64,000 nucleotides of DNA from the NCBI RefSeq assembly GCF_025641885.1, contig NZ_JAOTQN010000001.1, positions 1,264,547 to 1,328,546 on the forward strand, read 5' to 3'. How positions within the stretch are numbered: position 1 is the first letter of the stretch; each line of letters begins with the position of its first letter. This stretch comes from Pyrobaculum sp. 3827-6 (GTDB lineage: Archaea; Thermoproteota; Thermoprotei; Thermoproteales; Thermoproteaceae). The position numbers were made by a program, and so were the translations under genes. Under the pieces are notes generated by a model. That model was not told the DNA's origin. It did no database searches and worked only from the letters and a program-made list of their open reading frames with translations. Positions 2,134-26,834 of the stretch are shown here, piece by piece.

Positions 2134-2529
2134 TCTCCGCGCCGCCGTTTGTGAGGTCGGCGCTTGGCTGGGGGCCCCGGCAACTTCCTGGGCGTGTGCC
2201 ATGGGGGTGGCGGCTAGCCGCGGGGCGGAGGTGCCGTTTGGGGGTGTGCTGGGTGTAGGTCTTGGCGGTGGCCACGGGGCGGGCTCTCTGCGCGGGCTCC
2301 GTAGGTCGCTCGCCCCGCCTGGCGGGTGGCTAATCCTACGGGCTTCGCTCGGCGCGGCCTTGGCCAAGTTTCGGGCTCCTTGATCGGCGCCGGCGGCCGC
2401 CAGCCTGGACGAGGTGTTGAAGTGCCTCAACTCCACGGCCGATGCCTGCAAACGCCAAACGCGTCTCAACAGGAGGCAGGCTACCTCCCGCGGAGAAGGC
2501 CGATACCTCAACTCTAGCCCCGCCGCGCC
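2134..2529. other. No recognisable gene (GC-rich spacer after PaREP1 relic)
   Basis: About 400 bp of GC-rich DNA. Open frames exist on both strands, but their composition (Arg, Pro, Ser and Gly runs) is typical of non-coding high-GC sequence. It probably belongs to the decayed PaREP neighbourhood. Confidence 0.4.
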
Positions 2530-2907
2530 TCAGCTCTTCCTGGCAATCTCCACCAACAGCTTCTGTATGTCAAGAAGCAACGCATACACCCCATCAATCC
2601 TCTTATTCGTCTCATCTATCCTCCTACCCAGCTCCTGGGCTATCGCGTCAATACGCTTATTCGTCTCGTCAATACGCCTACCCAACTCTTGAGCTATCGT
2701 GTCAATCCGTCTGTTTGTCTGGTCTATTCTCTGGTTTACCTCGGCGATCTCCCTCCTAATCTCGTCAAGCTCCTTTCCTATTGTCGCCAAGTAGAGGAGG
2801 AAGATGTCTTCAGTGGACAGCTTCTTACCCTCCCTCAACTTGCCGAGGACAGACTCCACAGCCACCCTAAGCGCCTCCTGCGCCAAAGCCCCCAGCTCCC
2901 CGGACAC
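2530..2907 (-). CDS. Heptad-repeat coiled-coil protein
   Basis: A 125-residue protein. Residues 1-45 form a helical cap containing GKKLSTEDIFLLYL. From about residue 50 on there are repeated IDETNKRIDAIAQELGRR units that predict a long coiled coil. It is a paralogue of the genes at 19925-20389 and 21666-22196, which share the cap pattern (GEKLKPEDLAVLTI) and the RIDETNKRID repeats. GTG 2907 lies about 20 bp after the TATA-like TTTTTATTTAGG (plus coordinates 2924-2935). No catalytic motif is visible. A structural or interaction role is likely, but the partner is unknown. Confidence 0.7.
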   Translation of the reverse strand: MSGELGALAQEALRVAVESVLGKLREGKKLSTEDIFLLYLATIGKELDEIRREIAEVNQRIDQTNRRIDTIAQELGRRIDETNKRIDAIAQELGRRIDETNKRIDGVYALLLDIQKLLVEIARKS

Positions 2908-2936
2908 AGTACTGAAAACCCCCCTAAATAAAAATC

Positions 2937-5521: not shown

Positions 5522-5703
5522 CACTCAAGTCGCTACAAGGCCGCGGAGGAGGTGCTCAGGTTGGCGGCCCCCCTCAGGCTCCTGGCCAAGGCAGTGGGGC
5601 TGGCGATAGCCCGCGCCAGGGGGGTCGAGGTAGACGAGGAGAGGGCCATAGCGCTCGGAATACAGTGGCTGAATACGCCAAGGAGGTGGAGGCGCTGATA
5701 TGA
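5522..5703 (+). pseudogene. Fragment of a PaREP1/HEPN-like gene
   Basis: From 5534 a frame reads YKAAEEVLRLAAPLRLLAK and later VEVDEERAIALGI; one frame away it finishes as AEYAKEVEALI and a stop at 5703. The YKAAEEV core is the hallmark of PaREP1-type HEPN proteins such as the gene at 24403-24909, which has LYKAAEEAVKAL. The N-terminus is absent and there is a frameshift near 5660, so it is a relic just before the glycosyltransferase block. Confidence 0.4.
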
Positions 5704-5734
5704 AAAACAACGGGTTAGGGCCTGTGGCATCTCT

Positions 5735-7745: not shown

Positions 7746-7770
7746 CTGTACGGCACCGAGCCCCCGGCTC

Positions 7771-8625
7771 CTACCGACTTCTACGGTTGGTGTTCCTATA
7801 TGGATCTGTAGACAGCCCCAAGACGGCGCCTACGCCAGCCACAAAGAACTGAACTAGTTTTAGGCCAATTACGAAGTATATACCCAAAGGCCACCTACTT
7901 CCCAGATACGAGAGATAGCGGCGGGAGAAAAACGTAGGCCTGACAGGACTCATGTGAAGCGGATCGCGCCACTTTCTGAAATACGCCACGGTGTTTCTAC
8001 CATAGTAGAGAGACTTCAAGACCAGATCCCGGAAGGTGTATTCGTCAATATGTATTTCAAAGGCGTTTATATAGCCGACGCGCGCACCAGACGCCACAAT
8101 TCTCTTATGCAAGTCGTAGTCCTCGTTGGAGTAGAGGCTCTCATCAAAGCCGCCGATCTTGAAAAATACCTCCCGCTTCATGCAACGCGCCGCCTCGTAC
8201 ACCCCGCTCCCCAGATACGACAGCCTTTCGAAATACCGCGCCCTCGCCACCAGCCCCCTCCTCGGGTTGCTTATGTTAGGCACCACCACCGCGTCGAAGC
8301 CCTCCGCAATCTTCTCAACACACTCCTCCACGACCCTCGGCGAAATCCAGAAATCACCGTTGGTAAAGTATAGTACATCACCCCGAGCCACCCGCGCCCC
8401 GAAATTCATCTGCGCCGTCCTCTCGGGGCCGTAGCTATACACCCGCGCCCCAAAGCGCCTCGCGACGTCCGGCGTCCCGTCGACGCTGAAGTTATCCACC
8501 ACGATCACCTCTACCTCACGATAGGTCTGCCTCCGCAACGACTCGAGAGTCAGCCCAAGCGTCGCCGCGGAGTTCCTCGTCGGGATAACCACCGACACCA
8601 GCCAACGCGCCACGCCGCTAGGCAC
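7771..8625 (-). CDS. Family 2 glycosyltransferase, atypical metal motif
   Basis: A 284-residue GT-A enzyme: VSVVIPTRNSAATLGLTLES, VIVVDNFSVDGT, then EDYDLHKRIVASGARVGYI near residue 170. Where most GT2 enzymes have D-x-D, this one reads FTNGDFWIS, so only one acidic residue is in place; activity or metal use may differ. A hydrophobic stretch near residues 245-270 suggests membrane association. The start at 8625 lies 76 bp inside the 3' end of the upstream membrane-protein gene; an internal GTG near 8596 would still overlap it. Same strand and overlap indicate one transcript. Confidence 0.82.
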   Translation of the reverse strand: MPSGVARWLVSVVIPTRNSAATLGLTLESLRRQTYREVEVIVVDNFSVDGTPDVARRFGARVYSYGPERTAQMNFGARVARGDVLYFTNGDFWISPRVVEECVEKIAEGFDAVVVPNISNPRRGLVARARYFERLSYLGSGVYEAARCMKREVFFKIGGFDESLYSNEDYDLHKRIVASGARVGYINAFEIHIDEYTFRDLVLKSLYYGRNTVAYFRKWRDPLHMSPVRPTFFSRRYLSYLGSRWPLGIYFVIGLKLVQFFVAGVGAVLGLSTDPYRNTNRRSR

Positions 8626-11279
8626 ACAGACAGTATAAATACATAGCCAGCCGAGGCCACCACCGCAATTCGTTGCACGTCGCTGAGCACATACCTCAGC
8701 TCGCAGACCCCGCCCACATCTACAAAATACCCATTAACAAGACCAAAAGCCTTAACCGGCCTGTATTCCCGGCCGCCGCAGTCCAAAACCCAAAACGGGT
8801 CATACAAAACATTAAACTGCAGAAAGCCGCGCCCCACGCTAAACCTCCCCACACACGAGACGTTCCGCACCCACAAGCGCTCCCAGAAGTCCCGCGAAAT
8901 GAAAAGTACATACGACACCCGCGTCTTGACGAAGTCAAGCACCTCGCCCCCCCGCACCACCGACCCGTTCCCCACCACGCCCTCCCGTCCAAGCACGGGG
9001 CCCCCCTCCACGCGCAGAAACACTACATATTCCCCCTCCCCCGGCACCCGGAGGAAGCCGCTGAAGCCAGCCGCGACACCCAGCGGAGACGACAAATCCC
9101 TATACTTCGGCCCCGGCAGGTCGTACGGCGTTATTATAAACACCCGCGGCGGGGGGGACTCGCCGGGCTCCATAAAAGCCAGCCCCCCAACAGCCACCAA
9201 CCCCCCCGAGAAAACCGCCTCCACAGGCACGGCACCTCCCCGCCAGGAAAGCCGGCCCGCGTACACCCAGCGGAAGCGCGACTCGCCCGACCGCATGCTG
9301 ACGACAAAGACCTCCCCACCCAGCCTAAGCTCGAGGACCCCACTCACATTAGACACAAGCCCCCTCACATACACATCGTAGACCCCGGCCGGGAGCTCCA
9401 CAGACCCCACCACCCGGCCCCCCTCGCCGTACACAAAGACGTCTACAGGGTCAAAAGACCACAAGCCCCCACGCCGCTTAAGCTCCCGGTAAAAGACGTC
9501 GTAGATGATGCCGGTCCCCCCGGCCAGCCCCTCCACACGCATTTCCCGAAACGTGGCAACCGCCGCCACCCGGCCGGGGAGGAGGTCAGCCCCCTGAACC
9601 GCCGAAGCGTTCACGTAGCCAAAGACGACGGGCGGCGTCCTCCAACCCAGCACCGAGTAGAGGACAGCCACCGCCGGGTAGCCGCCGGACAAGACAAGCG
9701 GCTCCCCCACGCGGCAGAGCGGCGCGTCGGCGATTTTGTAAACCGCAAGCGCCTCCGAGCTCACCACAGCCTCGCCCACGTGCGAGAAGTAGGCCGCGGC
9801 GTCCCCCAGAGCGCGGCCGAGATCACTATATGCCCCAGCCCACACCCTATCTCTAACTATCCCGACGTAGTCCACCCCCACCACCCCATACGCCACCCCA
9901 GGATCCACAGAAACCAAGGCAAAGGGAAACGCCGTGTAGTTGATATAGTTAAAAAAGGCGAAGTACTGCGACAAGAGGCCTGTATATATGTGGGAGAGGG
10001 CGGGCCCGCCCCAGCTCCTCACCTCCACAATCCCCGTGGGCCCCCACACCTCAGACACCCAGCCCGGCCTGCCGCAGGCAACCCACGTAGCCCTAAACTC
10101 GCCCATCCCGGGGAGCCAAAGCGCCTTCCCCACGAAGCTTGGTAGGTCCCAGTAAGCCCGGGGCGGCGTAGAGGCGCACCAGTAGCCCCACATATCGCCA
10201 GAGAAGTAGACGGGCCCGTAGAAAAGGGCCGGCGCCGCCACCACGGCCAAGACGGCGCCGCGCCTCTCCAGACGCGTCAACACAATCAAAAACCCCAAAA
10301 GAGTAACAACCCCGTTCCAATACGGCTGCCTCAACAGACGGCCCAACACCGGCACCACCCCCAGCAGGAAATCCACATTAACAGTCGACGTCAGCAACAT
10401 GCCCACAGCCACAAACACAGCCCCCAGAAGCACCACCCAGTCCCTCCCCCGCCTAGCCAAAACAATAGCGAAACTCAGCACCACCGGAGCAAAGCCGTAG
10501 TCAAGGACGCCAGCCGTGACCTTCTCAAATAAGTCGCCCGGGTAGTAGTACCTAAGCACCAACGCGCTGAAGACGTCAACCCTACGGAAGTACTCAGTGA
10601 CGCCGAAGGTAGCTAGCGCGAGGCTACCTGCCCCGGCCATGTGGATCACAGCGGGGAGTGTCCTGGGAAGCGAGAGGACAGCCCCCGTGGCCAGGGCCAG
10701 GGCCACGTGTCCCCATCTGACGCCCCCCCTCAGCCTCCACGCCAGCAGTAAAAGAGCCGCCGCGCCGAACACCGCGTAGAACCTGTAGCTGGCCATAGAG
10801 AGCACCAACGCAAGGCCAAGTGAGGCGGCCAGCCGCCCCTCAGACGCCCCCAGCAACAGGTGGAGCGCCGTAGGGAAAAGGGCATACTCAAACCGGAACT
10901 GGACATCCCGCGGCTGATTTATAAACAGAGGGTTAAAGACGTAGAGCAGAGCCAGAAGCCACCCCCACCTAGAAAACCTCCTCAAGAAAACCGCCGCGGA
11001 GAGGTACGCCAAGGCCCCCGGCAACCCCAGCGCCAGAACCTGCAACACCTTGTAATCCCCCAGAGACACGCCGTACAGGAGGAGGTAGAGGTAGAGCTTG
11101 CCCAGATCAACCTCGCTGAAGATCTCCGTGTTTGGCCAGAGAGAAGACACGTCAAGAAACTGCCGCGCGTCCAAAACCTCGAACTGCTCAGCCAGAAAGA
11201 CGTAGCCGCCCGACGCCGAAAAGCGCCACACAGACCCGGCGAAAAGCACCAAAGCCACAACCAGAGCAACCGGACGCAT
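8550..11279 (-). CDS. Large polytopic membrane protein, probable GT-C-type glycosyltransferase or YfhO-like
   Basis: A 909-residue protein. Residues 1-390 hold about ten hydrophobic segments, starting with a signal-anchor (ALVVALVLFAGSVW). Residues about 400-880 are soluble and rich in beta strands, with several N-x-S/T sequons, and would face outside. A last hydrophobic helix is at about 880-900. Short acidic motifs follow the first membrane segment (EVLDARQF), as expected for lipid-linked sugar transferases. The shape recalls arabinosyltransferase-like or YfhO-like families, but I cannot assign one. ATG 11279 lies 25 bp after TGTATAAATAGG, so transcription is leaderless. Confidence 0.75.
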   Translation of the reverse strand: MRPVALVVALVLFAGSVWRFSASGGYVFLAEQFEVLDARQFLDVSSLWPNTEIFSEVDLGKLYLYLLLYGVSLGDYKVLQVLALGLPGALAYLSAAVFLRRFSRWGWLLALLYVFNPLFINQPRDVQFRFEYALFPTALHLLLGASEGRLAASLGLALVLSMASYRFYAVFGAAALLLLAWRLRGGVRWGHVALALATGAVLSLPRTLPAVIHMAGAGSLALATFGVTEYFRRVDVFSALVLRYYYPGDLFEKVTAGVLDYGFAPVVLSFAIVLARRGRDWVVLLGAVFVAVGMLLTSTVNVDFLLGVVPVLGRLLRQPYWNGVVTLLGFLIVLTRLERRGAVLAVVAAPALFYGPVYFSGDMWGYWCASTPPRAYWDLPSFVGKALWLPGMGEFRATWVACGRPGWVSEVWGPTGIVEVRSWGGPALSHIYTGLLSQYFAFFNYINYTAFPFALVSVDPGVAYGVVGVDYVGIVRDRVWAGAYSDLGRALGDAAAYFSHVGEAVVSSEALAVYKIADAPLCRVGEPLVLSGGYPAVAVLYSVLGWRTPPVVFGYVNASAVQGADLLPGRVAAVATFREMRVEGLAGGTGIIYDVFYRELKRRGGLWSFDPVDVFVYGEGGRVVGSVELPAGVYDVYVRGLVSNVSGVLELRLGGEVFVVSMRSGESRFRWVYAGRLSWRGGAVPVEAVFSGGLVAVGGLAFMEPGESPPPRVFIITPYDLPGPKYRDLSSPLGVAAGFSGFLRVPGEGEYVVFLRVEGGPVLGREGVVGNGSVVRGGEVLDFVKTRVSYVLFISRDFWERLWVRNVSCVGRFSVGRGFLQFNVLYDPFWVLDCGGREYRPVKAFGLVNGYFVDVGGVCELRYVLSDVQRIAVVASAGYVFILSVCLAAWRVGWCRWLSRRGTPRRRLG

Positions 11280-11365
11280 ATATCAAAGGAAATCGTCGCC
11301 TATTTATACACGTCCACATGATTTTTCTAAGCGAAACATTTAAAAAGACACCCGTTCCACTGGTT
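11280..11365. promoter_or_regulatory. Divergent promoter between membrane-protein and glycoprotein genes
   Basis: The 86-bp space holds two oppositely directed TATA boxes: TATTTATACA (11301-11310), reading leftwards to ATG 11279, and TTTAAAAAG (11340-11348), reading rightwards to ATG 11366. Each is about 25 bp from its start codon. Both genes are therefore leaderless and could share regulation. Confidence 0.7.
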
Positions 11366-13753
11366 ATGCCTAACTCAAAACTAATGTTAGCGGTGCTAGC
11401 CACCGCATTAATAGCCATGGCAACATCAATATGGCCCGATAAGATAGAAATCGCTGCTGTCCCCGGGACAAACCCAACAGTTCTCTACAACACGTGCTAC
11501 CCCAACGCATGCACAGGCAACCTCTGGTACGACCACTGGCCCTTCGGCGGCACTCCGCCGCTCGCTCTAGTGGCTATCGGAAGCCCCGCCTACGGCGACT
11601 TCTACAACATCACAAGACAACTAGTAGCCCTAGGGCTAAATGTTGACCCGAGCTTTGTCAAGAGATTCAACAATAATGGTACAAACACAATTGGGATAGG
11701 CTTCACACAGTTCGGCGAGTTCGCCGCAACTATTAACTACATGGGGCAACCCCTTGGCGGCGGGCTTTCCTTCGCAGACTACAATAGACCAAACCTCCTA
11801 TCCAGATACGAGACCTGGACCACGCAAATCGTACAGCCAAAAGACTGGATAAACGGCTGGACACTATCTCTAAATATCACATTCATCCCAAATGACCCAA
11901 CGCTAGTTAACTACAAGTACATCACGATACATGCATTTGCCACCTACAGCAACAGAACACACGCCGGCGGAGGCAGAGGCGTGGTTCTAAATATAACAAA
12001 CACCCAAACGCCGACTCCACCTAACCCACTTACGTTAAAGAATTGGATTTACTTCCCTCTACAGAGCAGTGGGCTTAGAATAATATACGACTCTCCCAGG
12101 CTTCTGGTAGCTAACGGCTCATCCTACGCAAGTATCAACTTGGAGAGTATTGACCCGACGCTACCTATAACTGTTAATCTCAAGGTGTGGTACACCTTAA
12201 TATTCCCCAAGGCATGGCCCTATGCCATCATATACTACAACTATACCGTGTCAGTTACGCAGGGCAAGCTGACGGCTGGCGGCCAAATTTATCTAAACTC
12301 GACGGCCTTCTCTATAAGATACGAGATAGACCAAGTCAACGCCGCAGGTCCTGCGTCTTCGAACGCTACGATATTCGCAAAACAACAATTCTGCGGCAAG
12401 CAGGCCGACATCCTCCACGCCTTGCCATCAGCAACGCAGTTTAGAAACATAACCATGTTCACCGTGGTGTACCCATCGGCCACAGAGTACTCAGTATACG
12501 CGCCCGACTACATAGCCCCGGTTTCAATACCGTTCAACTACAGAATTGTGCTACCCACAGGCACCGCGAGAGCCACCTACTCACCAGCGCCGTTTATACC
12601 CTTCGTAATCCACCAGTGGAAGTATAGGTTAGATAAGCTGGTACCCGCACCGGGCGCCGCCACCTACAGCGGCGGTGCAATGTTTATATACGGATACACC
12701 AGAAACATGACAAATTGGGCAGAGCTAAACAAGCCTGATTTGTATATCTCGAGCTTAGTCGAGTACACAATCTTAGGAATACCGAAACTATACTTACCTT
12801 CGTTTGGCGATCCAGCCCTCGGCTCCTCTCCAGGTGGAAACCCGTATCACAATAAGACATATCCGCATATATTAACCTGTAGTGGAGTTCGTTATATACC
12901 TTGTCCGCAGGGTGGTGCTTGTATAATAGAAATACCAGGTTACGAGCCCGTTTATGGTGTTGTGGGAGCTTATTCGTTTGTTGGTGATGTTTTGGCGCTT
13001 GGCTTTGTCACGAGGGTTACTTACTACATGGCTTTTGATGTTGCGCCGACTGACTACGCCGGTAGCTATCCGCCTGCCGCTATTAACTTGCCCAACTTCG
13101 GCGGGTTTGCCGTGGTTCTAGGCCTGTATCCGGGCGGTAGCTTTATTGATAACTACGGTAGGGCTGGACTGGCGAGGACTATATTCGCTGGTAGGTTTAA
13201 TGTGTCTTCGACTTCTATAGTCACCGTGGGTGGTCCTGTTCCTAACTTGATGACGCGCTATGCTCAGGACTTCTTCTGGTTTGTGCCGTTTGTCGCAGAT
13301 TACGCTGGCGTGAAGGTATACGCCCCGCCGGGCACCTACTACGCGGACAGTGCCTTCAAGTCGAGGCTAGTTCCAACTGTCTGGAACAACATGACGCTAC
13401 TGCCTGCAAACACGGCCTGGCCGCCGCAGTACGGCGGCAATAGGGGACTGGGCGTAGTTGGATCTACAATAGATCCCAACGGCACCGTAATCGTGCAGGT
13501 CTGGGGTATGTCTGCGCAGGATACCTACTGGACCGCGTGGGCTCTGCAGTACTTACCTTCAAACATTCCTGGATACTATGGCTACAATGCATATCTGTTC
13601 AGCATAACATACTACACAAGTGGCCCGTATACCTACTTGCCGCAGAGGGTTGATGTCTATGTTGTTGACCCGGTGGTTGGTATTAGACCTCTAGGTACTC
13701 TGACGTTCGGCAAGTTGATACCGCCTAAGCTACTGTATCATAGCTGGACGTAA
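11366..13753 (+). CDS. Large secreted surface glycoprotein (S-layer-like)
   Basis: About 795 residues. An N-terminal signal (KLMLAVLATALIAMATS) is followed by an Asn-, Tyr-, Pro- and Thr-rich beta-type sequence with many N-x-S/T sites (NIT, NGT, NRT, NMT, NVS). No C-terminal anchor is seen. Residues about 617-770 contain TVGGPVPNLMTRY and, later, VIVQVWGMSAQDTYWTAWA. The same two motifs occur twice in the protease at 14521, so they mark a shared surface domain resembling archaeal S-layer modules. The frame opens at 11132, but ATG 11366, 25 bp after a TATA box, gives a proper signal peptide. Codon use changes near 12880, from C-ending to T-ending codons. Confidence 0.8.
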   Translation: MPNSKLMLAVLATALIAMATSIWPDKIEIAAVPGTNPTVLYNTCYPNACTGNLWYDHWPFGGTPPLALVAIGSPAYGDFYNITRQLVALGLNVDPSFVKRFNNNGTNTIGIGFTQFGEFAATINYMGQPLGGGLSFADYNRPNLLSRYETWTTQIVQPKDWINGWTLSLNITFIPNDPTLVNYKYITIHAFATYSNRTHAGGGRGVVLNITNTQTPTPPNPLTLKNWIYFPLQSSGLRIIYDSPRLLVANGSSYASINLESIDPTLPITVNLKVWYTLIFPKAWPYAIIYYNYTVSVTQGKLTAGGQIYLNSTAFSIRYEIDQVNAAGPASSNATIFAKQQFCGKQADILHALPSATQFRNITMFTVVYPSATEYSVYAPDYIAPVSIPFNYRIVLPTGTARATYSPAPFIPFVIHQWKYRLDKLVPAPGAATYSGGAMFIYGYTRNMTNWAELNKPDLYISSLVEYTILGIPKLYLPSFGDPALGSSPGGNPYHNKTYPHILTCSGVRYIPCPQGGACIIEIPGYEPVYGVVGAYSFVGDVLALGFVTRVTYYMAFDVAPTDYAGSYPPAAINLPNFGGFAVVLGLYPGGSFIDNYGRAGLARTIFAGRFNVSSTSIVTVGGPVPNLMTRYAQDFFWFVPFVADYAGVKVYAPPGTYYADSAFKSRLVPTVWNNMTLLPANTAWPPQYGGNRGLGVVGSTIDPNGTVIVQVWGMSAQDTYWTAWALQYLPSNIPGYYGYNAYLFSITYYTSGPYTYLPQRVDVYVVDPVVGIRPLGTLTFGKLIPPKLLYHSWT

Positions 13754-17895: not shown

Positions 17896-17992
17896 GTCCC
17901 GTGCGGCGAATCTGTTTATATCTATTTTGCCTATCTGCGCAGGTTCGCGGCGTGTGCAGAGTTGCGTCAGGCCGGTTGCGTAGGCTCCGCGC

Positions 17993-18004
17993 GGGGGGGG
18001 GGGA
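17993..18004 (+). repeat. Run of 12 G
   Basis: Uninterrupted G12 between the PaREP1 gene and the broken FkbM gene. Runs of 11-12 also occur at 4491, 19058 and 48271. It lies about 75 bp upstream of the PaREP1 TATA box, so length changes could at most affect spacing. Confidence 0.95.
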
Positions 18005-19057: not shown

Positions 19058-19068
19058 CCCCCCCCCCC
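19058..19068 (+). repeat. Run of 11 C
   Basis: Eleven C in a row, upstream of the FkbM relic promoter. It lies in no recognisable gene. Confidence 0.9.
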
Positions 19069-19107
19069 GCCGGAGACGCCGGTGTCGACGGGGGTGGTCA
19101 TCGACAT

Positions 19108-19924
19108 CTTCGGGCGTGGAAAGTTGCGGGAGATTAAAAAGACGTTTTTGTAAATTCTTAGAGGCGGCGTTGCTTATAGACTTCGCCGATTACGTGGCGT
19201 GTCTTGTACGTCTCCGCGGGCACGGCCTGTCTGTCTCCGGATCCCCCCGAGGGGGGGCCCCGTCGCCGGGTTTCCGCCTGTAGAGCTCCTCGAACCCGCC
19301 TCTCGACGTAGGTGTTGTGTCGGCTCATCTGTGTCGGCCGGTCTTTCTTTTCGACGGACCCCCGCCGGCGGCGGCCGCGATTTTTTCGTACTTGGCTGGG
19401 GGCGCTCTGGTGGGTTGGCGACGCCTCTGTGCACACCGCCGGCTCTCTGGCCTCGATTCGTCGACGGCCGCGGCGGCTTTTCCTCTGGCGGCTCCGATCG
19501 CCTCCTTGGCGGCGTCGAGGGCAGGCTGGCGGATCTGGCGGGGGTTTGTTGGCTGGTCGCCTCGGCGGCTGAGGTGAGGGGCTTGTTCTTCAGATCGGCG
19601 GTTTTGAGCCCGGCGGTTACCCCCCCTCGGGCGTGTTCGCGTAGGTGGCATCGAAGCCCGGCCCTTGGGAGCTCCGCCGGCTCCCTGAGCCGAGCCGCCT
19701 TTCCGCAACTCTCAGCTCTGTATACCGCATGTACGGGTGCGTGCTTTCCTCTGTCGCTCCTCCACGCCTCTGAGGGCGGCCTCCTGTCTACGAGCTGTCC
19801 GTCGTGTCCGCGAACCCCCCGACCCTCGCCTTCTTGGTCCCCTTCTGGGCTGAGGTCCCCGGCGCCTATCCCCCGTAGGGCCCGGGGCTACTGTCCACGT
19901 CCGGCAGGTGCCTCCCGGCGGGGG
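19108..19924. other. No recognisable gene
   Basis: About 800 bp of GC-rich DNA. A 331-codon open frame crosses it on the plus strand, but its composition is Arg/Pro/Ser-rich and its end is antisense to the coiled-coil gene, so it is not treated as real. The minus strand shows equally unconvincing Arg/Pro frames. Confidence 0.45.
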
Positions 19925-20389
19925 CTAGCGGCTTGCCAGCCTTGTCTTTATCTCGCTGATGTCGCTTCTGAGCTGGACGATCTCTCTATACATCTCAGCC
20001 ATGAGCTTCTGCATGTCAAGCATAGTCTTCTGCATCTCCGCAACCGTCCTCTGAGTCTCGGCAATAGTCCTCTGCATATCAGCAATAGTTTTTTGAAGCT
20101 CACCAATCTGCTGGTAAACCCCATCAATCCTCCTACCGAGAGAATCAGCCACAGCGTCTATTCTTTTATTCGTCTCGTCTATTCTCCTGCCTAGATATTC
20201 CGCGACAGCATCAATCCTCCTGTTAGTCTCGTCAATCCTCTTATTCGTCTCGTCTATTCTCTTGTTTAGATCCCTCACCACGGCGATTGTCAAAACGGCG
20301 AGGTCCTCAGGCTTGAGTTTTTCGCCTTTTTCCAGCTTCTTCATAACAACTTCAAGAGCCTTATCCAAGGCGAGCGAAAGATACTCCAC
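19925..20389 (-). CDS. Heptad-repeat coiled-coil protein (inverted-repeat copy A)
   Basis: 154 residues. A short cap (YLSLALDKALEVVMKKLEKG, then EKLKPEDLAVLTIAVVRDLN) is followed by four RIDETNKRID-type units. The C-terminal coil has undecapeptide-like repeats (QRTIAETQRTVAEMQKTMLD). The GTG start at 20389 begins the same VEYLSLALDKALEVV sequence as copy B at 21666. The final 66 codons or so are identical in DNA to copy B: 19953-20152 is a perfect inverted repeat of 21969-22168. Coiled-coil proteins of this sort are common in Pyrobaculum; no function is known. Confidence 0.75.
   Translation of the reverse strand: MEYLSLALDKALEVVMKKLEKGEKLKPEDLAVLTIAVVRDLNKRIDETNKRIDETNRRIDAVAEYLGRRIDETNKRIDAVADSLGRRIDGVYQQIGELQKTIADMQRTIAETQRTVAEMQKTMLDMQKLMAEMYREIVQLRSDISEIKTRLASR
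19953..20152 (-). repeat. 200-bp perfect inverted repeat, left arm
   Basis: The reverse complement is identical, base for base, to 21969-22168. It lies within the 3' half of coiled-coil gene copy A. Just outside, single mismatches appear (GACGCT against GACGCC; GCGAGATAAA against GCGAAATAAA). Perfect identity within otherwise diverged genes implies recent gene conversion or duplication. Confidence 0.95.
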
Positions 20390-20633
20390 GTAAAGAAATA
20401 CTTGCGTATTTAAATAACTGACGCACCCCGGCGGCGCGCCGGCGCCCACTCCCCGCTCCCCCACACAGACAACCCCCCAGACGAGCCCACCCCCCACAAA
20501 CCCGCGCGCCGGGTCGCTCCCCGGGCCTTAAGTTGCTCAAAGACCCGCCAGCGGCGGCGCGCCCCAGCAACCATCTGCACGGAGCCGGCGCTACACGCCG
20601 ACGACCCGCCTACGGAGGCGGCGACGGCGGGCC

Positions 20634-21488
20634 CTAGCCGCCCCCGCCCGCGGCCCCCGCCTCCTCCGGCTTCACAATCCTTATCCCCATCCTCCCAGCC
20701 GCGGCCTCCACCAGCGCCGGGTTCTTGTCGTGGATAAACGCCGTGATTATGAGGACCCTGTCCACCTTTCTGCCGGACGCGCGCTCGTACAGATCGGCCT
20801 TCCTCCTCACCACCGCCAGATCCCCCCTCTTAACCGCCGCCGTGATCTCCACAGCGAACACCAAGCCGTCCCTCACCACCACGTCCAGCTCCACCTCCGC
20901 CGGGTGGCCGTAGACGTAGCCCTCGGAGTCGAAGTAGACCCACCTCTCCACCGAGAAGCCCGCCTCCCTAAGAAGCTCCCTAACCCCGGCCCTAAACGCC
21001 TCCTCACTCCACACACCCCACCGCGCCCCCAGCGCCTCAATCCTAAGACCAAGCATGCGCTCCACCTCCCCAATCCTCTTCTCCAGCCTCGCAACGTCGC
21101 CCTTCAACACAGCGACGTCGCTCTTCAGTGTGGCGACGTCACCTTTAAGAACCTCCATGTCGCTTTTCACAGCCGCCACGTCGCTCTTCAACACAGCGAC
21201 ATCGCTCTCCAATCTCGCCACGTCGCCCTTCAGTGTAACAACATCGCCCTTAAGAGTTGCCACGTCGCTCTTCAGAACAGTCACGTCGTTTTTAAGAGCG
21301 GCCACGTCGCCCCTCAGCGCCGCTATCCCCCCCTCCAGCCTCGCCACGTCCTCCTTGGTGGCCAGCTTCTCCCACGGCGCAACCTTCGCCAGCGCCTCGT
21401 AGAGGATCTGCGGCCTAGCCGTCAACACCTCCACCAGAATCTCCGGATGCTCCAGCAAAACACGCCTCACCTCCTCAGCAACAGACAC
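20634..21488 (-). CDS. Long coiled-coil protein with PD-(D/E)XK-like C-terminal domain
   Basis: About 284 residues from GTG 21488 (VSVAEEVRRVLLEHPEI). After a helical head, residues about 45-150 are strict heptads of the form LKSDVATLKGDV, a long parallel coil. The C-terminal 130 residues contain RAGVRELLREAGFSVERWVY, then AEVELDVVVRDGLVFAVEIT and KADLYERASGRKVDRVLIIT. This is the layout of PD-(D/E)XK-like domains, although the usual E-x-K reads E-I-T here. It is the only gene between the two inverted-repeat arms. Function unknown; nuclease activity is doubtful given the altered site. Confidence 0.72.
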   Translation of the reverse strand: MSVAEEVRRVLLEHPEILVEVLTARPQILYEALAKVAPWEKLATKEDVARLEGGIAALRGDVAALKNDVTVLKSDVATLKGDVVTLKGDVARLESDVAVLKSDVAAVKSDMEVLKGDVATLKSDVAVLKGDVARLEKRIGEVERMLGLRIEALGARWGVWSEEAFRAGVRELLREAGFSVERWVYFDSEGYVYGHPAEVELDVVVRDGLVFAVEITAAVKRGDLAVVRRKADLYERASGRKVDRVLIITAFIHDKNPALVEAAAGRMGIRIVKPEEAGAAGGGG

Positions 21489-21665
21489 AAAAAACCCCAC
21501 ACACAACTATAAAAACATAACCACCCCACAAGACGACCCCCCACCCACGGCAACACACCACCACACCCAACAAGCACCCGCAGACAGGGGCGCCGGAGGA
21601 ACGGACAACCCCCCAAGCCAGAGCAACCGTGCGTAAGGTACTTAAATACCACCACAACTCCATAC

Positions 21666-22196
21666 GTGGAGTATCTGTCGCTCGCCTTGGACAAGGCTCT
21701 TGAGGTAGTGGTGAAGAAGCTTGAGAGGGGAGAGAAGCTCAAGCCGGAGGACCTCGCCATCTTAACAATCGCAGTGGTGAGAGACCTAAACAAGAGAATA
21801 GACAACCTCGCCGATTCACTAAACAAACGCATAGACGAAACAAACAAGAGAATAGACGCCGTAGCCGAAGCCCTCGGCAAGAGAATAGACGAGACCAACA
21901 AGAGGATTGACGCTGTTGCGGAGCATCTAGGCAAGAGAATAGACGAGACGAACAGGAGAATAGACGCCGTGGCTGATTCTCTCGGTAGGAGGATTGATGG
22001 GGTTTACCAGCAGATTGGTGAGCTTCAAAAAACTATTGCTGATATGCAGAGGACTATTGCCGAGACTCAGAGGACGGTTGCGGAGATGCAGAAGACTATG
22101 CTTGACATGCAGAAGCTCATGGCTGAGATGTATAGAGAGATCGTCCAGCTCAGAAGCGACATCAGCGAAATAAAAACGAGGCTAGCCAACCGCTGA
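21666..22196 (+). CDS. Heptad-repeat coiled-coil protein (inverted-repeat copy B)
   Basis: 176 residues, 22 longer than copy A because it has more RIDETNKRID units (KRIDNLADSLNKRIDETNKR, then AVAEALGKRIDE). Cap and C-terminal coil match copy A. The TATA-like GTACTTAAATAC (21637-21648) lies about 25 bp before GTG 21666, and copy A has a similar TATTTAAATA box. The DNA from 21969 to 22168 is identical to copy A. A small aspartic-protease-like gene follows 61 bp downstream on the same strand. Confidence 0.75.
   Translation: MEYLSLALDKALEVVVKKLERGEKLKPEDLAILTIAVVRDLNKRIDNLADSLNKRIDETNKRIDAVAEALGKRIDETNKRIDAVAEHLGKRIDETNRRIDAVADSLGRRIDGVYQQIGELQKTIADMQRTIAETQRTVAEMQKTMLDMQKLMAEMYREIVQLRSDISEIKTRLANR
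21969..22168 (+). repeat. 200-bp perfect inverted repeat, right arm
   Basis: Mate of 19953-20152; the two arms enclose 1816 bp containing the 284-residue gene and the 5' halves and promoters of both coiled-coil genes. Confidence 0.95.
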
Positions 22197-22257
22197 GCCG
22201 CGGACGCGGCAACGCCAGGGAGCGTAAGGTATATATTCATTATGGACAGGCATGTTT

Positions 22258-22602
22258 ATGGGCATTGCATTTGCGGAGGCTGTGATAAACGGCGTGAGGT
22301 TCAAGGCCCTTGTTGACACCGGCTTCAATGGCGATGTATTGGTAAGGCGTGAGGTCGCCCAGAGGCTTGGGCTACACATAATTGGGAAAACCAAGAGGAG
22401 GACTGTGGACAACAGAGTCGTCGAGCTGGACGTCTCCTATGCAAAGCTCGGGCTCTACGGCGAGGAGGGCTATGTCATAGTTGAGGTAATAGAGGACTCG
22501 CCGGTAGACGTCCTCATCGGGGTGAGGGCCCTCGAAGCCCTGGGGTTCGTGGTGGATCCAGCCACCGGCACCCTTAAGAAAATAGGCCTAATAGCGGTAT
22601 AA
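22258..22602 (+). CDS. Clan AA (retroviral-type) aspartic protease-like protein
   Basis: A 114-residue single-domain protein. ALVDTGFNGDVLV carries the catalytic D-T-G triad of pepsin/retropepsin folds, and VDVLIGVRALEALGFVVD is the second hallmark (hydrophobic, hydrophobic, Gly, before the C-terminal strand). It would act as a dimer. A TATA box (GGTATATATTC, 22228-22237) is 25 bp before ATG 22258; ATG 22252 is an alternative. Substrate unknown. Its 3' end overlaps the convergent TOPRIM gene by 15 bp. Confidence 0.75.
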   Translation: MGIAFAEAVINGVRFKALVDTGFNGDVLVRREVAQRLGLHIIGKTKRRTVDNRVVELDVSYAKLGLYGEEGYVIVEVIEDSPVDVLIGVRALEALGFVVDPATGTLKKIGLIAV

Positions 22603-23385
22603 ACCCGACGCCTGCCAGACGGCGCAAAACCGCTGACTGTCCGTAGGGCCACGGCTCTGGCAGGTGCGGTGGATCCGTCGACGTAGAGTAGTCAAAAGAC
22701 TCGGCCGAGTCAAAACCAGCTTAACTAACTCATCAAACGACCGCCTGCCGCGGATTTGTAGCTGGGAATCTGGGGGTGGTGGCGGTTGCTGGCTACGTTG
22801 TGTGGGTTTCATATGGCTGGTTATTAACTCAATGAGTTGGGCGAGGGTTGGGTCGAGTTGCCTTGCTTTGTTGCCCAGCTCCAGGCCTACTACGTGGTAG
22901 AAGTCGTGGATCGTGGTCCAGTAGTCGCCGACGGGTGTGTTGAATGCGGAGTGGCGGTGTTTCCAGGTGAGGTACATGGCAGGGTATGCCTTCTTTTTGC
23001 CGTCTTGGTTGTGCCTCTCTTGCTCCAACATGGCGGCGGCCTCGGGGATGTCTTTGAGGAGTAGCGGCGCCGCTTTGAATATTAGGTGGTCGAGGCTTCT
23101 GTGGTTTAGGTAGTGCATCTGGACGGCGCCGCCGCAGTCGACGTCTCTCGCGTCGCCGTCGGGGAGGGTGTGTATTTCAAGCCCGGCGCCGTAGTCCTGC
23201 AACATCGCCGCTGCTCTGTTGCATATCTGGTCTTTGCCGCCGCCGTCGCATATGCAGACCGCCTCTTGTATGCAGCAGCACTCGTACTTGTACCTCCTAT
23301 CTCTGTGGCTTCTTGTGGAGCGTATGCCTAATACGCCGAGTAGGAACATCAAGTCGCTTTTCCCCTCGACGAAGATAATGATCAT
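22588..23385 (-). CDS. TOPRIM-domain protein (DUF3226/DUF4435-like), partner of the ATPase upstream
   Basis: 265 residues. The TOPRIM signature is visible: FVEGKSD (Glu7), CDGGGKD (Gly48-50), and LPDGDARD (Asp76 and Asp78, the D-x-D). Such domains bind Mg and cut or modify nucleic acid in OLD, Gabija and PARIS-type defence systems. Residues about 205-265 are an odd tail with PPPPPDSQ and a basic stretch, perhaps read-through into formerly non-coding DNA. ATG 23385 overlaps the ATPase stop by one base (TAATG), so the two proteins are translated together. Assignment as nuclease is inference from the motif set and the partner. Confidence 0.75.
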   Translation of the reverse strand: MIIIFVEGKSDLMFLLGVLGIRSTRSHRDRRYKYECCCIQEAVCICDGGGKDQICNRAAAMLQDYGAGLEIHTLPDGDARDVDCGGAVQMHYLNHRSLDHLIFKAAPLLLKDIPEAAAMLEQERHNQDGKKKAYPAMYLTWKHRHSAFNTPVGDYWTTIHDFYHVVGLELGNKARQLDPTLAQLIELITSHMKPTQRSQQPPPPPDSQLQIRGRRSFDELVKLVLTRPSLLTTLRRRIHRTCQSRGPTDSQRFCAVWQASGLYRY

Positions 23386-24398
23386 TATGGGCAGTTGCCT
23401 CTTAGGTCTTCGTCTAGTTTTGTAAGGGCTTTGTAGGCGGTTTCTCCGTCGTAGAGGCGTAGGGTGCCCCTGGCGCCTGTCTCTATTAGGAGGATTTGGC
23501 TGAGATCCGCCTTTTCGAGGAGGGCTTGTAGCATTTCTCTACTCTGCGTAGATATGATCCACTGGACGTCTTGTGTGTTAGCTATGAGCTCAGCCGCTTT
23601 TTCCATGAGCCAGGGGTGGAGGTGGAGCTCGACGTTGTCGTAGATGACTATGTCTCTGGTGGCGGCTAGCACCATTAGCACCAAGGCGGCGTATCCACTG
23701 CCTAGGTAGTGGATTGGTATGTCTCTGTTTTTGGCTATGACTACTATGTTTTGTCTGTCAAATTCGTCAGTTTTGAGGCCTACGAATTTTATCTCTAGCT
23801 CTTTTAAAAACTTGGTGAACAGCTCGGCGGCTCTGTAGTAGTTTATTAATTTCGTCAGCGAAATTATGAAGGGCTGGGCTAGGGGGTTCGGCGTAGACAG
23901 CGCGACGAAGTTGTAGCTGGGGATGCTGATTTTACCCGCCCTGGTGACGTCAAGCCGGGGCTGTCCTGGGAGGTATTCAACTTTTAGATACGCCGTCTCA
24001 CGGCCGTTTTGGGCTTGTAGTCCTCTTGTGTATGGGCTACGGGGGGCTAGGATGGGCATCTGCTGTGCGATTTGGGCCAGCTCTTCGGGGGTCAGCCCGC
24101 CTTTGAAGTCTACGCCGTCTATCGATATTTCAAAGCCGTCGTTTAACAGCTTGTAGAGCCATAGGTCGTCCATTCTGAGGCTTGAGGCGATGGTGGAGAG
24201 AGACGGCACTTCTTCGGGGTTTGCGAGGAGTAGGAGCGAGGCCGTGGCAGCCTCTAGTATCGAGGTCTTGTAGGCGCCGTTGCACCCCGTGACTACGTTG
24301 ACTCTCCTCAGCTCGATTTCGCCTCCGGGGCGTCCGGCGACTGTGAACTCCGCCGCCCTTATCCTTTTTATGGCAATCTTCTTAATGGGGGTCGGCAT
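23385..24398 (-). CDS. OLD/PARIS AriA-like ABC-type ATPase (AAA_15/AAA_21)
   Basis: 337 residues. Walker A is GCNGAYKTS near residue 39, the ABC-signature-like LGSGYAAL is near 233, and Walker B is DIVIYDNVELHLHP near 250. Here the usual Asp-Glu at the end of Walker B reads Asp-Asn, with Glu two positions later. The H-loop region is QWIISTQSREML. It lacks a C-terminal TOPRIM; that domain is supplied by the next gene, as in PARIS (AriA plus AriB) and unlike single-chain OLD proteins. It lies 4 bp after the PaREP1/HEPN gene. The expected role is a sensor ATPase controlling the TOPRIM effector. Confidence 0.78.
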   Translation of the reverse strand: MPTPIKKIAIKRIRAAEFTVAGRPGGEIELRRVNVVTGCNGAYKTSILEAATASLLLLANPEEVPSLSTIASSLRMDDLWLYKLLNDGFEISIDGVDFKGGLTPEELAQIAQQMPILAPRSPYTRGLQAQNGRETAYLKVEYLPGQPRLDVTRAGKISIPSYNFVALSTPNPLAQPFIISLTKLINYYRAAELFTKFLKELEIKFVGLKTDEFDRQNIVVIAKNRDIPIHYLGSGYAALVLMVLAATRDIVIYDNVELHLHPWLMEKAAELIANTQDVQWIISTQSREMLQALLEKADLSQILLIETGARGTLRLYDGETAYKALTKLDEDLRGNCP

Positions 24399-24402
24399 AT
24401 GT

Positions 24403-24909
24403 CTAGTAGCCGCCGACTATTTTTAGGGCTTCCTGGACTATTTTCTCCACATCTGGTAGTCTTTCACCTACGCCCTCGGCGTCTAGCTTGGCCTCGTGGA
24501 AGCCCCACACGTGGAGTACCCACGCCGCGTCCCAGGACTGCCTAAACCACCTGCCCACTTTTTTCGATATCTCGGCGACGGCCTTCTCTAGGTCCGTGAC
24601 TGTCCACCTCCCCCTCTCCTCAACCCTAGACAGTACGTCTTTTAGGTTGTAGTGTTGTGTTAAGGCCTTGACCGCCTCCTCGGCGGCTTTGTAGAGCTTC
24701 TCGCTGGCTTGAGCTGGATCTCTGTGTGCCAGCTCTCTGCCCTCCTCTAGGTACTTCACAGCTAGGTCAAGCCTGGCTTTTGCGCAGGCTTGGGGGTCTA
24801 GGTTGAGGGCTTTTGCCAACGCCGCCACCTCCAGCTCGCCTATGTCGAGGCCCCTCTTCGCGGCCTCCTCGTATAGGGATCTCGGGATCTCAACGGCTAC
24901 TGTGCCCAC
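24403..24909 (-). CDS. PaREP1/PaREP8-family HEPN-like protein
   Basis: 168 residues. The N-terminus (VAVEIPRSLYEEAAKRGLDI) resembles a small DNA-binding or ribbon-like segment. The core has ASEKLYKAAEEAVKALTQHY and WVLHVWGFHEAKLD, diagnostic of the PaREP1/PaREP8 group, which folds like HEPN. No clear R-x4-6-H motif is visible. It sits third from the end of a four-gene operon, 16 bp after the AAA ATPase and 4 bp before the AriA-like ATPase, which argues that it works with them, perhaps as regulator or effector. Confidence 0.78.
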   Translation of the reverse strand: MGTVAVEIPRSLYEEAAKRGLDIGELEVAALAKALNLDPQACAKARLDLAVKYLEEGRELAHRDPAQASEKLYKAAEEAVKALTQHYNLKDVLSRVEERGRWTVTDLEKAVAEISKKVGRWFRQSWDAAWVLHVWGFHEAKLDAEGVGERLPDVEKIVQEALKIVGGY

Positions 24910-24925
24910 GCCAACAACTACGCAG

Positions 24926-25927
24926 TTAGTTATATGTCTTTAACGCCCGCTTGACGGCTTCTCTGTGGAGGGGTGTCTGCCACGCCACGTATCTCCCGAT
25001 GCCGAGCTCTGGATCTCTCTCGGGCGGCGGCTGATCTATCCAGCTCTCGGGGCTTCTCTCTGGGAGGTGGTATATGATGAGGTTTTTCTCGACTAGTTCG
25101 TCAACTAACTCCCTGGACGCGCTGCGCCAGAGGTGGTCGGGATCCTCGACGGCTTCTCTAAGGTGGTTTTCCCACCTCTTGAGGAAGTGGTGTGTGAGTC
25201 CCTTTTCTCTGATTATGCTGTTTGTGACCCGGCTGTGGTCCCAGCGCGCCTCGTAGAGTTTTGCCAGGGCTCTGGGGTTTCCGCCTGTCAGCCGCCACGC
25301 CTCTTCGGGGCTGGGCTTCTCGCCGGGCAACCGGCTGTACAGCTCTTCAAACCCGTCTCTCGGCATGTTCCACATGGGGTCTGTGGTAGACCATAGATGT
25401 CTCCCTATCTCGCGGAGGCTTACCCCCTCGCTTGTTGCTACTACGGCTATTATCTTGTCGTAGCTGGCGGGTGGGTGCTCTAATATGCCGAGGAGGCCTT
25501 TTACGTAGAGCGCCGCCTTGTCTAAGCCGATGGCTTGGAAGGCGTCGTCGATTATTAAGGCGAGTCTCCCCCTTCTCCTCCTAATCAACTCCTTGGCCAC
25601 GTCTACCGCCACCCACGCCGCCCTGGCCCACGCCTCGCTTGAAGACTCCCGGAGGCTTTCCAGAAGCCTCTTTCTCAACTCCCCAACCCCCACCTCGGCC
25701 GACACCTCCTGCTCCACCGGGTTTATGTACACAACATCGAAGCCCAGCTCTCTCAGCAACTGAGCCGACTGCCTCAGCCAAGCAGTCTTGCCGCAACCCT
25801 CAGGGCCGTAGACCACGTGGGGGAGGGCGGTACCCCTCTCTGCCCACTCCTCTACCTTCCGGAGTGCCTTCTCTCTATCTACAAACTCGACTTCAAGGTT
25901 GGCGAAGCCGAGTTTGATTTTTTTCAT
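24926..25927 (-). CDS. Archaeal AAA+ ATPase (ATPase_2/STAND-like)
   Basis: 333 residues. Walker A is GPEGCGKT at about residue 43, Walker B is LALIIDDA at about 124, and sensor-1-like IIAVVATSEG is at about 161. RLTGGNPRALAKLY is the GxP-type motif common in archaeal ATPase_2 and STAND proteins. The C-terminal 100 residues form a winged-helix-like region (ASRELVDELVEKNLIIY). It is the first gene of the operon that continues with PaREP1, the AriA-like ATPase and the TOPRIM protein. Families like this are frequent beside mobile and defence genes in crenarchaea. Confidence 0.8.
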   Translation of the reverse strand: MKKIKLGFANLEVEFVDREKALRKVEEWAERGTALPHVVYGPEGCGKTAWLRQSAQLLRELGFDVVYINPVEQEVSAEVGVGELRKRLLESLRESSSEAWARAAWVAVDVAKELIRRRRGRLALIIDDAFQAIGLDKAALYVKGLLGILEHPPASYDKIIAVVATSEGVSLREIGRHLWSTTDPMWNMPRDGFEELYSRLPGEKPSPEEAWRLTGGNPRALAKLYEARWDHSRVTNSIIREKGLTHHFLKRWENHLREAVEDPDHLWRSASRELVDELVEKNLIIYHLPERSPESWIDQPPPERDPELGIGRYVAWQTPLHREAVKRALKTYN

Positions 25928-26279
25928 GTCTCTGGAAGATCTCGTGGGCTTAGTTGCGGGGCTCCGGCGCCGGTTGCTACCTCCAGCGCCTTTCTGGGGG
26001 TGGGGTGGGGGCGCTCCACGTCTAGAGGGGTGGAGGTGTTTTAAGTATCTTACGCGCGTTGTAAACCCCCAGTGGGGGTTTTCGGCTTGTTAGACGGCCA
26101 CTGGCCTGGGCGTTCTGCGGCGGGGGCTTGCCGCGGTTTCTGGGGGTTCCGGTGCCGCCTCCGTCTGCGGCGCTGGCGGCGGATCTCTGCGGCTGGTTTG
26201 CTGTCACGTGCGGTTTGGAGCTTGGGCGCGCCGCCTGCAACGCGGCGCTGACGTGGCCAGAGCCGTCTGGGGCCTGCGG
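25928..26279. other. No recognisable gene
   Basis: About 350 bp of GC-rich DNA between the ATPase operon and a PaREP1 gene. No promoter for the operon start at 25927 is obvious. Frames are Arg/Pro-rich and unconvincing. Confidence 0.4.
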
Positions 26280-26825
26280 CTAGGCGTATAGCTGTCTCTT
26301 CAGGTCTTTTAGGGCGTTTTCCAGCTCTGGAGTCCACCTAATCCTTTCTCTTAGGTCTTCGACTTTCTGGATGAGCTCTTTGAGGAGTAGTAGGATGTCT
26401 TTTGCGGCTTCTTCTCTTGTGCGGTATTTCGACAACGCCATGTCGGGGTCTGGGCCGTGGTACTGGTAGTCGTGTAGCTTAAGTGCCTTGTCTGTGGCGA
26501 AGGAAAGTTTTGTGTGGCCTGTGTCTTCAAACATCTGCGACAGCGCGGTCATTCTGCTGGTGGGCACCCGAGGCACGGCTGTTGTCTCCAGCCACTTCCT
26601 CTCCTCTTCGCTTCTCGCCACAGCCTTCAGCTTGCCTAGCTCCAGCCTTAACAAGGCTGCCATCAGCGCCCTCCACGCCTGGAAGGCCTTGCCGGCGGCG
26701 TTTCTAACTAGGCCGCGGCGGAGGTACTCAAGAGCCAGCCCAGCCTCCGCCAAAGCCTCTAGTAAACGCGCCTTGACGTAGTCCTCGGCGGAGGGCTTCG
26801 GGAGAGGCCTCTCCAAAACCTCCAC
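26280..26825 (-). CDS. PaREP1-like HEPN family protein (left flank of polysaccharide island)
   Basis: 181 residues, with the family motifs VEVLERPLPKPSAEDYVKAR, LVRNAAGKAFQAWRALMAAL, VPTSRMTALSQM and YQYHGPDPDMALSKYR. Although the frame opens a few codons earlier, TTTTTAAAAG (plus 26845-26854) is 25 bp from GTG 26825, the same spacing as the other copies. The first 150 bp of the gene are shared almost perfectly with the copy at 36066-36608, while the rest has diverged, so the 5' part was probably homogenised by recombination. Function unknown. Confidence 0.75.
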   Translation of the reverse strand: MEVLERPLPKPSAEDYVKARLLEALAEAGLALEYLRRGLVRNAAGKAFQAWRALMAALLRLELGKLKAVARSEEERKWLETTAVPRVPTSRMTALSQMFEDTGHTKLSFATDKALKLHDYQYHGPDPDMALSKYRTREEAAKDILLLLKELIQKVEDLRERIRWTPELENALKDLKRQLYA

Positions 26826-26834
26826 ATCCACGTA
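26672..26834 (-). repeat. 163-bp direct repeat, left copy (PaREP1 5' region)
   Basis: Matches 36455-36617 in the same orientation with one difference (CCGCC against CCACC near 26750). It covers the first part of both PaREP1 genes. The repeats bracket the 26.9-35.5 kb polysaccharide island. Confidence 0.9.

What the first reader, a model, noticed from the sequence alone, without database searches (positions are those of the whole stretch)
19953..22168. Perfect 200-bp inverted repeat could flip a 1.8-kb segment with a nuclease-like coiled-coil gene
I compared 19953-20152 (reverse complement) with 21969-22168 base by base and found no difference across 200 bp, while the flanking parts of the two coiled-coil genes differ. 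Homologous recombination between the arms would invert the interior, exchange promoters and N-terminal repeats of the two genes, and reverse the 284-residue gene. It could serve as a switch, or simply mark recent gene conversion.
Basis: seen in the sequence. Interest (0 to 1): 0.68.

Follow-up and report, generated by a model that had tools for sequence, protein, structure and literature searches.

The report
Recombining twin genes around nuclease gene
In a heat-loving archaeon, two near-identical coiled-coil genes facing away from each other flank a nuclease-like gene; the stretch between them lies the other way round in the closest relative, so the twin genes recombine, but flipping the stretch hardly changes any protein and no switch is shown.

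Summary
The 200-bp perfect inverted repeat is real in the assembly (19953-20152 / 21969-22168). It lies inside two divergently transcribed, homologous coiled-coil genes, A (20389-19925) and B (21666-22196). They flank a DUF3782/PD-(D/E)XK nuclease-like gene (about 21500-20634). The genome is Pyrobaculum sp. 3827-6, an Illumina 2x100 draft. The homologous locus of the nearest held relative (G003, presumably P. ferrireducens) is collinear outside the arms, but its interior is inverted, promoters included. Its arms are only about 82-84% alike, with a longest exact match of 41 bp. So the arms recombine on an evolutionary time scale, and the 200-bp block is best read as a recent gene-conversion tract. 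The same layout recurs at four other loci (exact repeats of 365, 591, 173 and 363 bp). At one orthologous pair, within-species identity of the arms exceeds between-species identity: concerted evolution. Arm sequences are unrelated between locus types and no recombinase gene is linked, so homologous recombination is the likeliest agent. A functional switch is not supported: flipping swaps promoters but alters only one residue (Ser/Asn) in each coiled-coil product. Caveat: the repeat is longer than the reads, so orientation in this strain needs a read-pair or PCR check.

The parts
19953..20152 (-). left 200-bp perfect inverted-repeat arm, inside gene A
   Evidence: exact match to 21969-22168 reversed
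21969..22168 (+). right 200-bp perfect inverted-repeat arm, inside gene B
19925..20389 (-). coiled-coil gene A (154 aa, RIDETNKR-type heptads); GTG start next to a TTTAAATA element (leaderless, inferred)
21666..22196 (+). coiled-coil gene B (176 aa), divergent from A
   Evidence: only coiled-coil-type Pfam matches
20634..21500 (-). interior gene: long coiled coil + DUF3782 + PD-(D/E)XK (PDDEXK_10) domain
   Evidence: PF07788 E 4e-29, PF12644 E 1e-22; AlphaFold model with long helix 51-163 and a C-terminal alpha/beta domain
20252..21803 (.). segment that lies inverted in G003 (boundary inside the arms not resolvable)
   Evidence: window 20252-21858 aligns to L024 7908-6273 in reverse, flanks forward
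21501..21665 (.). divergent promoter region of the nuclease gene and gene B, which moves with the inversion
   Evidence: G000 right upstream = G003 left upstream, 50/50 in the columns next to the gene
22252..22602 (+). retropepsin-like aspartyl protease gene next to gene B, outside the inverted segment, with a TATA-like element of its own
   Evidence: PF13650 E 1e-8; upstream sequence
2523..2912 (-). right arm of a second inverted pair in the same genome (390 bp, 99.5%; left arm lies before the window start), enclosing another PDDEXK_10 gene near window position 529
   Evidence: L026 5452-5840 / 9070-9459; longest exact run 365 bp

Best explanation
The arms are two inverted copies of one coiled-coil gene that keep exchanging sequence by the cell's ordinary homologous recombination (RadA pathway, inferred). 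Most exchanges are gene conversions, which homogenise the repetitive coiled-coil coding sequence and left the 200-bp identical tract. Some resolve as crossovers, which invert the 1.8-kb interior. SHOWN: the identical bounded tract, opposite interior orientation in two related genomes' assemblies, concerted evolution at one orthologous locus pair, and recurrence of the layout around PDDEXK_10 genes. INFERRED: RadA as agent, the direction of conversion, and that the inversion is nearly neutral, because it swaps promoters between almost identical proteins while the nuclease keeps its own promoter.
For: The 200-bp block has 0 differences between denser differences on both sides. G003: outer flanks collinear, interior reversed, promoters exchanged; flipping the window in silico makes it collinear with G003. 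G003 arms are only about 82-84% alike, longest exact run 41 bp. G004/G005 orthologous locus: in arm columns 100-400 paralogues within G004 match 100/100 per block while orthologues between species match 95-96/100; in the catalytic part orthologues match 95-100% and paralogues 54-68%. Exact inverted repeats enclosing PDDEXK_10 genes: 200, 365, 591, 173 and 363 bp. Twenty control stretches of 20 kb hold one inverted repeat of 100 bp or more, at 81%, and none at 90% or above. Second locus: the single G003 gene joins the left copy's upstream flank to about 70 bp of the right copy's downstream flank, as expected of a recombinant junction. No tyrosine or serine recombinase match within several hundred kb of the locus. 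Three inversions at 17-35% frequency in P. oguniense, one bounded by inverted GluDH copies (PMC3558965).
Against: The window assembly is Illumina 2x100 only, so the join across a 200-bp perfect repeat could be wrong, and closely similar copies can be collapsed during assembly. In T. kodakarensis homologous recombination was reported for identical stretches of 500 bp or more (quoted in PMC5495485), longer than four of the five exact repeats. The G003 arms show no comparable recent conversion. The crossover point cannot be placed in the mosaic arms. Only one informative relative of this exact locus was found. Most PDDEXK_10 loci scanned (about 80 of 85) have no such repeat.
Confidence: 0.72

Rival explanations
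1. Assembly artefact: the true orientation equals that of G003, and the assembler mis-joined through the 200-bp repeat (and perhaps collapsed differences in it).
For: 2x100-bp reads only, SPAdes/Unicycler; the repeat is longer than the reads; flipping at the block restores collinearity.
Against: The assembler joined the region inside a 1.41-Mb contig, which normally needs pair support (inference). In columns 350-450 the body of the right gene matches the right gene of G003 (97/100) although its promoter matches the left gene of G003, which points to a crossover upstream of the 200-bp block. The same layout with long exact repeats exists in genomes of one contig.
Confidence: 0.17
2. Functional switch (a recombinase-free shufflon): inversion at appreciable frequency changes which promoter drives which C-terminal part or neighbouring gene, giving population heterogeneity in nuclease or coiled-coil dosage.
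For: Recurrent layout; at G004, G005 and G025 the arms are the 5' coiled-coil parts of two convergent genes with different C-terminal parts, so inversion would reassign promoters. Pyrobaculum populations carry inversions at 17-35%.
Against: In the window the products of both orientations differ by one residue. Both copies keep an intact reading frame and a TATA-like element in either orientation. G004 and G005 have the same arrangement relative to the shared flank. No expression or population data.
Confidence: 0.08
3. Site-specific inversion by a recombinase, possibly a relaxed archaeal integrase like that of plasmid pTN3, which acts on segments down to 104 bp.
For: A relaxed integrase is known in Thermococcus (PMC5495485); the genome has Phage_integrase matches.
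Against: The nearest integrase match is more than 500 kb away, and G003, G004 and G005 gave no Phage_integrase match. Arm sequences are unrelated between locus types (RIDETNK, ATKEDLK and ENNKLWQE repeats), so there is no shared site.
Confidence: 0.03

Closest known systems
Population inversions in Pyrobaculum oguniense TE7 (GluDH, RAMP/paREP, C8; PMC3558965)
   Same: Same genus; inversion bounded by inverted copies of genes; no dedicated recombinase reported; both orientations in one culture
   Different: Those segments are 22-173 kb; here 1.8 kb around a nuclease-like gene, with homogenised repetitive coiled-coil arms; population state unknown
hsdS inversions of Streptococcus pneumoniae (PMC4948785)
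   Same: Inversion between inverted homologous coding parts of neighbouring genes exchanges gene parts; two of the three inversions there do not need PsrA
   Different: There the inversions change methylation specificity and phase; a recombinase gene lies in the locus; here almost no protein change and no linked recombinase
T. kodakarensis inversion between integrated elements TKV2 and TKV3 (as reviewed in PMC8371274)
   Same: Archaeal homologous recombination between inverted related elements, modelled to make chimeric integrase genes
   Different: Large-scale chromosomal inversion between mobile elements; here short chromosomal gene copies
DUF3782 / PD-(D/E)XK proteins of crenarchaea (PMC4786415)
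   Same: Interior gene belongs here by Pfam; sequence matches to solved DUF3782-type coiled coils 6h9l and 5apz
   Different: That paper treats coiled-coil structure; the search for terms on recombination or rearrangement found none in it

Membership tests
Homologous-recombination inversion between inverted gene copies | inverted homologous arms | tested here: met
Homologous-recombination inversion between inverted gene copies | interior orientation differs between related genomes | tested here: met
   subject to the assembly caveat
Homologous-recombination inversion between inverted gene copies | both orientations in one population | not testable with these tools
   raw reads SRR21876913 not available here
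Homologous-recombination inversion between inverted gene copies | dependence on RadA | not testable with these tools
   needs experiment
Gene conversion / concerted evolution | paralogues within a species more alike than orthologues between species, limited to a tract | tested here: met
   G004/G005 arms; bounded 200-bp block in the window
Recombinase-driven inverton / shufflon | linked site-specific recombinase gene | tested here: not met
   no Phage_integrase or Resolvase match nearby
Recombinase-driven inverton / shufflon | short conserved recombination sites | tested here: not met
   arms are coding sequence and unrelated between locus types
Transposon with terminal inverted repeats | target-site duplication and transposase inside | tested here: not met
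   no shared direct repeat above 5 bp at the outer edges; interior encodes a PDDEXK_10 protein, not a known transposase
PDDEXK_10 / DUF3782 (interior gene) | match above the curated Pfam cut-off | tested here: met
   100.7 and 80.3 bits against 21.2 and 24.4
PDDEXK_10 / DUF3782 (interior gene) | PD-(D/E)XK fold and D...ExK catalytic motif | tested here: inconclusive
   best fold matches are mostly PD-(D/E)XK enzymes but none at E 0.001 or better; motif reads ExT with a Lys four residues later

The most novel reading that the evidence does not exclude
In Thermoproteales, inverted, homogenised coiled-coil arms around PD-(D/E)XK genes form a recombinase-free shuffling arrangement that reassigns promoters or partner nuclease domains within populations.
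Probability: 0.1. Interest if true: 0.7.

Novelty: new variant of a known kind. Interest (0 to 1): 0.42.

Why it matters
It adds a short, testable case of inversion and concerted evolution by general recombination in hyperthermophilic archaea, and ties it to a recurrent gene layout around DUF3782/PD-(D/E)XK genes for which the paper searches here found no report. If both orientations coexist in cultures it would be a handle on archaeal recombination with short homology (173-591 bp exact), below the 500-bp figure quoted for T. kodakarensis in four of five cases.

Tried and rejected
A site-specific recombinase nearby: searched and not found. A transposon: no target-site duplication. Viral origin: one weak hit in viral contigs (35% identity), not followed. 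The pattern as a rule for all PDDEXK_10 genes: rejected, about 80 of roughly 85 loci scanned lack it. Placing the crossover exactly: not possible, the five gene copies are mosaics. Inversion between G004 and G005: looked for, not found; their arrangement relative to the shared flank is the same. More strains of the window's species: the genome collections searched hold one genome per species, and the named-genome scan returned neither G000 nor G003. A defence system around the window genes: the PADLOC matches are mostly generic AAA ATPase models plus one weaker PDDEXK-type model. First Python attempts failed because of a file name, a locus-id format and a protein file; rerun.

Full report
What was checked. 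The two arms are exactly complementary over 200 bp (19953-20152 and 21969-22168), within a longer homology of 316 nt at 94% and 141 nt at 86%. The homology is that of two whole coiled-coil genes, A (20389-19925, 154 aa) and B (21666-22196, 176 aa), transcribed away from each other. In the aligned 316 nt there are 19 differences, none of them in the 200-bp block; random placement of 19 differences never gave such a run in 200,000 trials.

Where it is. The window lies in a genome of 2,302,599 bp in 13 contigs. These figures and the N50 of 1,414,246 bp are exactly those of Pyrobaculum sp. strain 3827-6 (PMC9872711), sequenced with Illumina 2x100-bp reads only; its nearest cultivated relative is P. 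ferrireducens 1860. The repeat is thus longer than the reads.

What the interior holds. The interior gene (20634 to about 21500, minus strand, 288 aa) has a long coiled coil, a DUF3782 domain and a PDDEXK_10 domain. An AlphaFold model (mean pLDDT 74.6) shows one helix over residues 51-163 and a C-terminal alpha/beta domain. The best fold matches are mostly PD-(D/E)XK enzymes (EcoO109I, EndoMS, AF1548, NucC) but none reaches E 0.001. By sequence only DUF3782-type coiled coils are found in the PDB (6h9l, 5apz). In the motif the usual Lys is Thr (ExT), with a Lys four residues later. Among 30 distinct motif sequences fetched, 23 have T, S or M at the first position and K or R at the second; 5 have K at the first and S or T at the second; two, probably from another family, have K and R. 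Nuclease activity is therefore likely but untested.

Inversion between species. In G003 the homologous locus (L024) has the same outer flanks in the same order (window 19227-20080 to 5338-6189; 21663-26834 to 7768-12877), but the interior (20252-21858) aligns in reverse (7908-6273), and the nuclease gene is on the other strand. An alignment of five copies shows that the upstream regions are exchanged (left copy of the window with the right copy of G003 49/50; right with left 50/50), while the downstream regions are not (49/50 and 31/31). Flipping the window segment in silico gives full collinearity with G003. The breakpoint lies somewhere in the arms. The gene bodies are mosaics, so it cannot be placed. 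The right gene's body in columns 350-450 stays with the right gene of G003 (97/100), which argues for a crossover upstream of the 200-bp block and against a simple mis-join in it, but does not prove it.

Gene conversion. In G003 the two arms are only about 82-84% alike with a longest exact run of 41 bp, so the 200-bp identity in the window is recent. At the orthologous locus pair G004/G005 (genome sizes of P. islandicum and P. neutrophilum; names from memory) the coiled-coil parts of two convergent PDDEXK_10 genes match 100/100 per block within G004, against 95-96/100 between species in the same blocks. The catalytic parts behave normally: orthologues 95-100%, paralogues 54-68%. This is concerted evolution confined to the arms.

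Recurrence. Exact inverted repeats enclosing PDDEXK_10 genes were found at five loci: 200 bp (window), 365 bp (same genome, about 20 kb away), 591 bp (G004), 173 bp (G005) and 363 bp (G025, size of Vulcanisaeta distributa). Twenty 20-kb control stretches held one inverted repeat of 100 bp or more, at 81% identity, and none at 90% or above. A rough Fisher test gave p = 3e-5 with 65 loci and an assumed 430 control genes. Twenty further PDDEXK_10 loci scanned later had none, so the true figure is weaker, about 1e-4 by my estimate, and the hypothesis arose from some of the same loci. The pattern is a minority one, about 5 in 85. At the second locus of this genome the single G003 gene combines the left copy's upstream flank with about 70 bp of the right copy's downstream flank, a recombinant junction, although the wider region is further rearranged.

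Agent. Arm sequences at the different locus types are unrelated repeats (RIDETNK, ATKEDLK, ENNKLWQE). No Phage_integrase or Resolvase match lies near the locus. General homologous recombination is therefore the simplest agent. In P. oguniense three inversions occur in 17-35% of the population, one bounded by inverted glutamate dehydrogenase copies (PMC3558965). Against this, T. kodakarensis was reported to recombine identical stretches of 500 bp or more, and a relaxed integrase of plasmid pTN3 acts on 104 bp (PMC5495485).

Function. In the window a flip would leave all reading frames intact and alter only the penultimate residue (S/N) of each coiled-coil product; the nuclease gene keeps its own promoter region. 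Only the pairing of promoters with outer flanks changes. A switch is thus possible only through dosage or readthrough, for instance towards the aspartyl protease gene, which however has a TATA-like element of its own. I consider the inversion most likely a nearly neutral by-product of recombination that homogenises repetitive coiled-coil genes.

Limits. One relative, one draft assembly without long reads, no population data, and no expression data. The decisive test is a count of read pairs in SRR21876913.

Noticed in passing
window 20634-21500 and PDDEXK_10 relatives in Thermoproteales and Sulfolobales: The catalytic Lys of the ExK motif appears to have moved: ExT/M/S with K/R four residues later, or ExK with S/T four residues later (23 and 5 of 30 distinct motif sequences; the other two, K/R, are probably another family).
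   Followed up: partly
window 22588-24398 (minus): An AAA_15-type ATPase gene overlapping by one base a 265-aa gene without Pfam or PADLOC match that begins MIIIFVEGKSD; resembles ATPase-plus-partner defence pairs. In G003 the homologous region seems broken into shorter reading frames.
   Followed up: partly
window 22252-22602: Retropepsin-like aspartyl protease gene; best PADLOC model is the protease of Sulfolobales type III CRISPR operons (weak, E 1e-4). No intact reading frame of 90 aa or more at this place in G003.
   Followed up: no
window about 17990-18003 and 19060-19071: Long G and C runs in a stretch (about 17.1-19.9 kb) with many overlapping spurious reading frames, possibly decayed genes.
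   Followed up: no
L097 4825-14706 and L098 7535-13500: Further inverted pairs of RID-type coiled-coil genes in P. aerophilum-size G001 (about 90% alike) and Pyrobaculum sp. WP30 (79%), without a PDDEXK_10 gene inside.
   Followed up: partly
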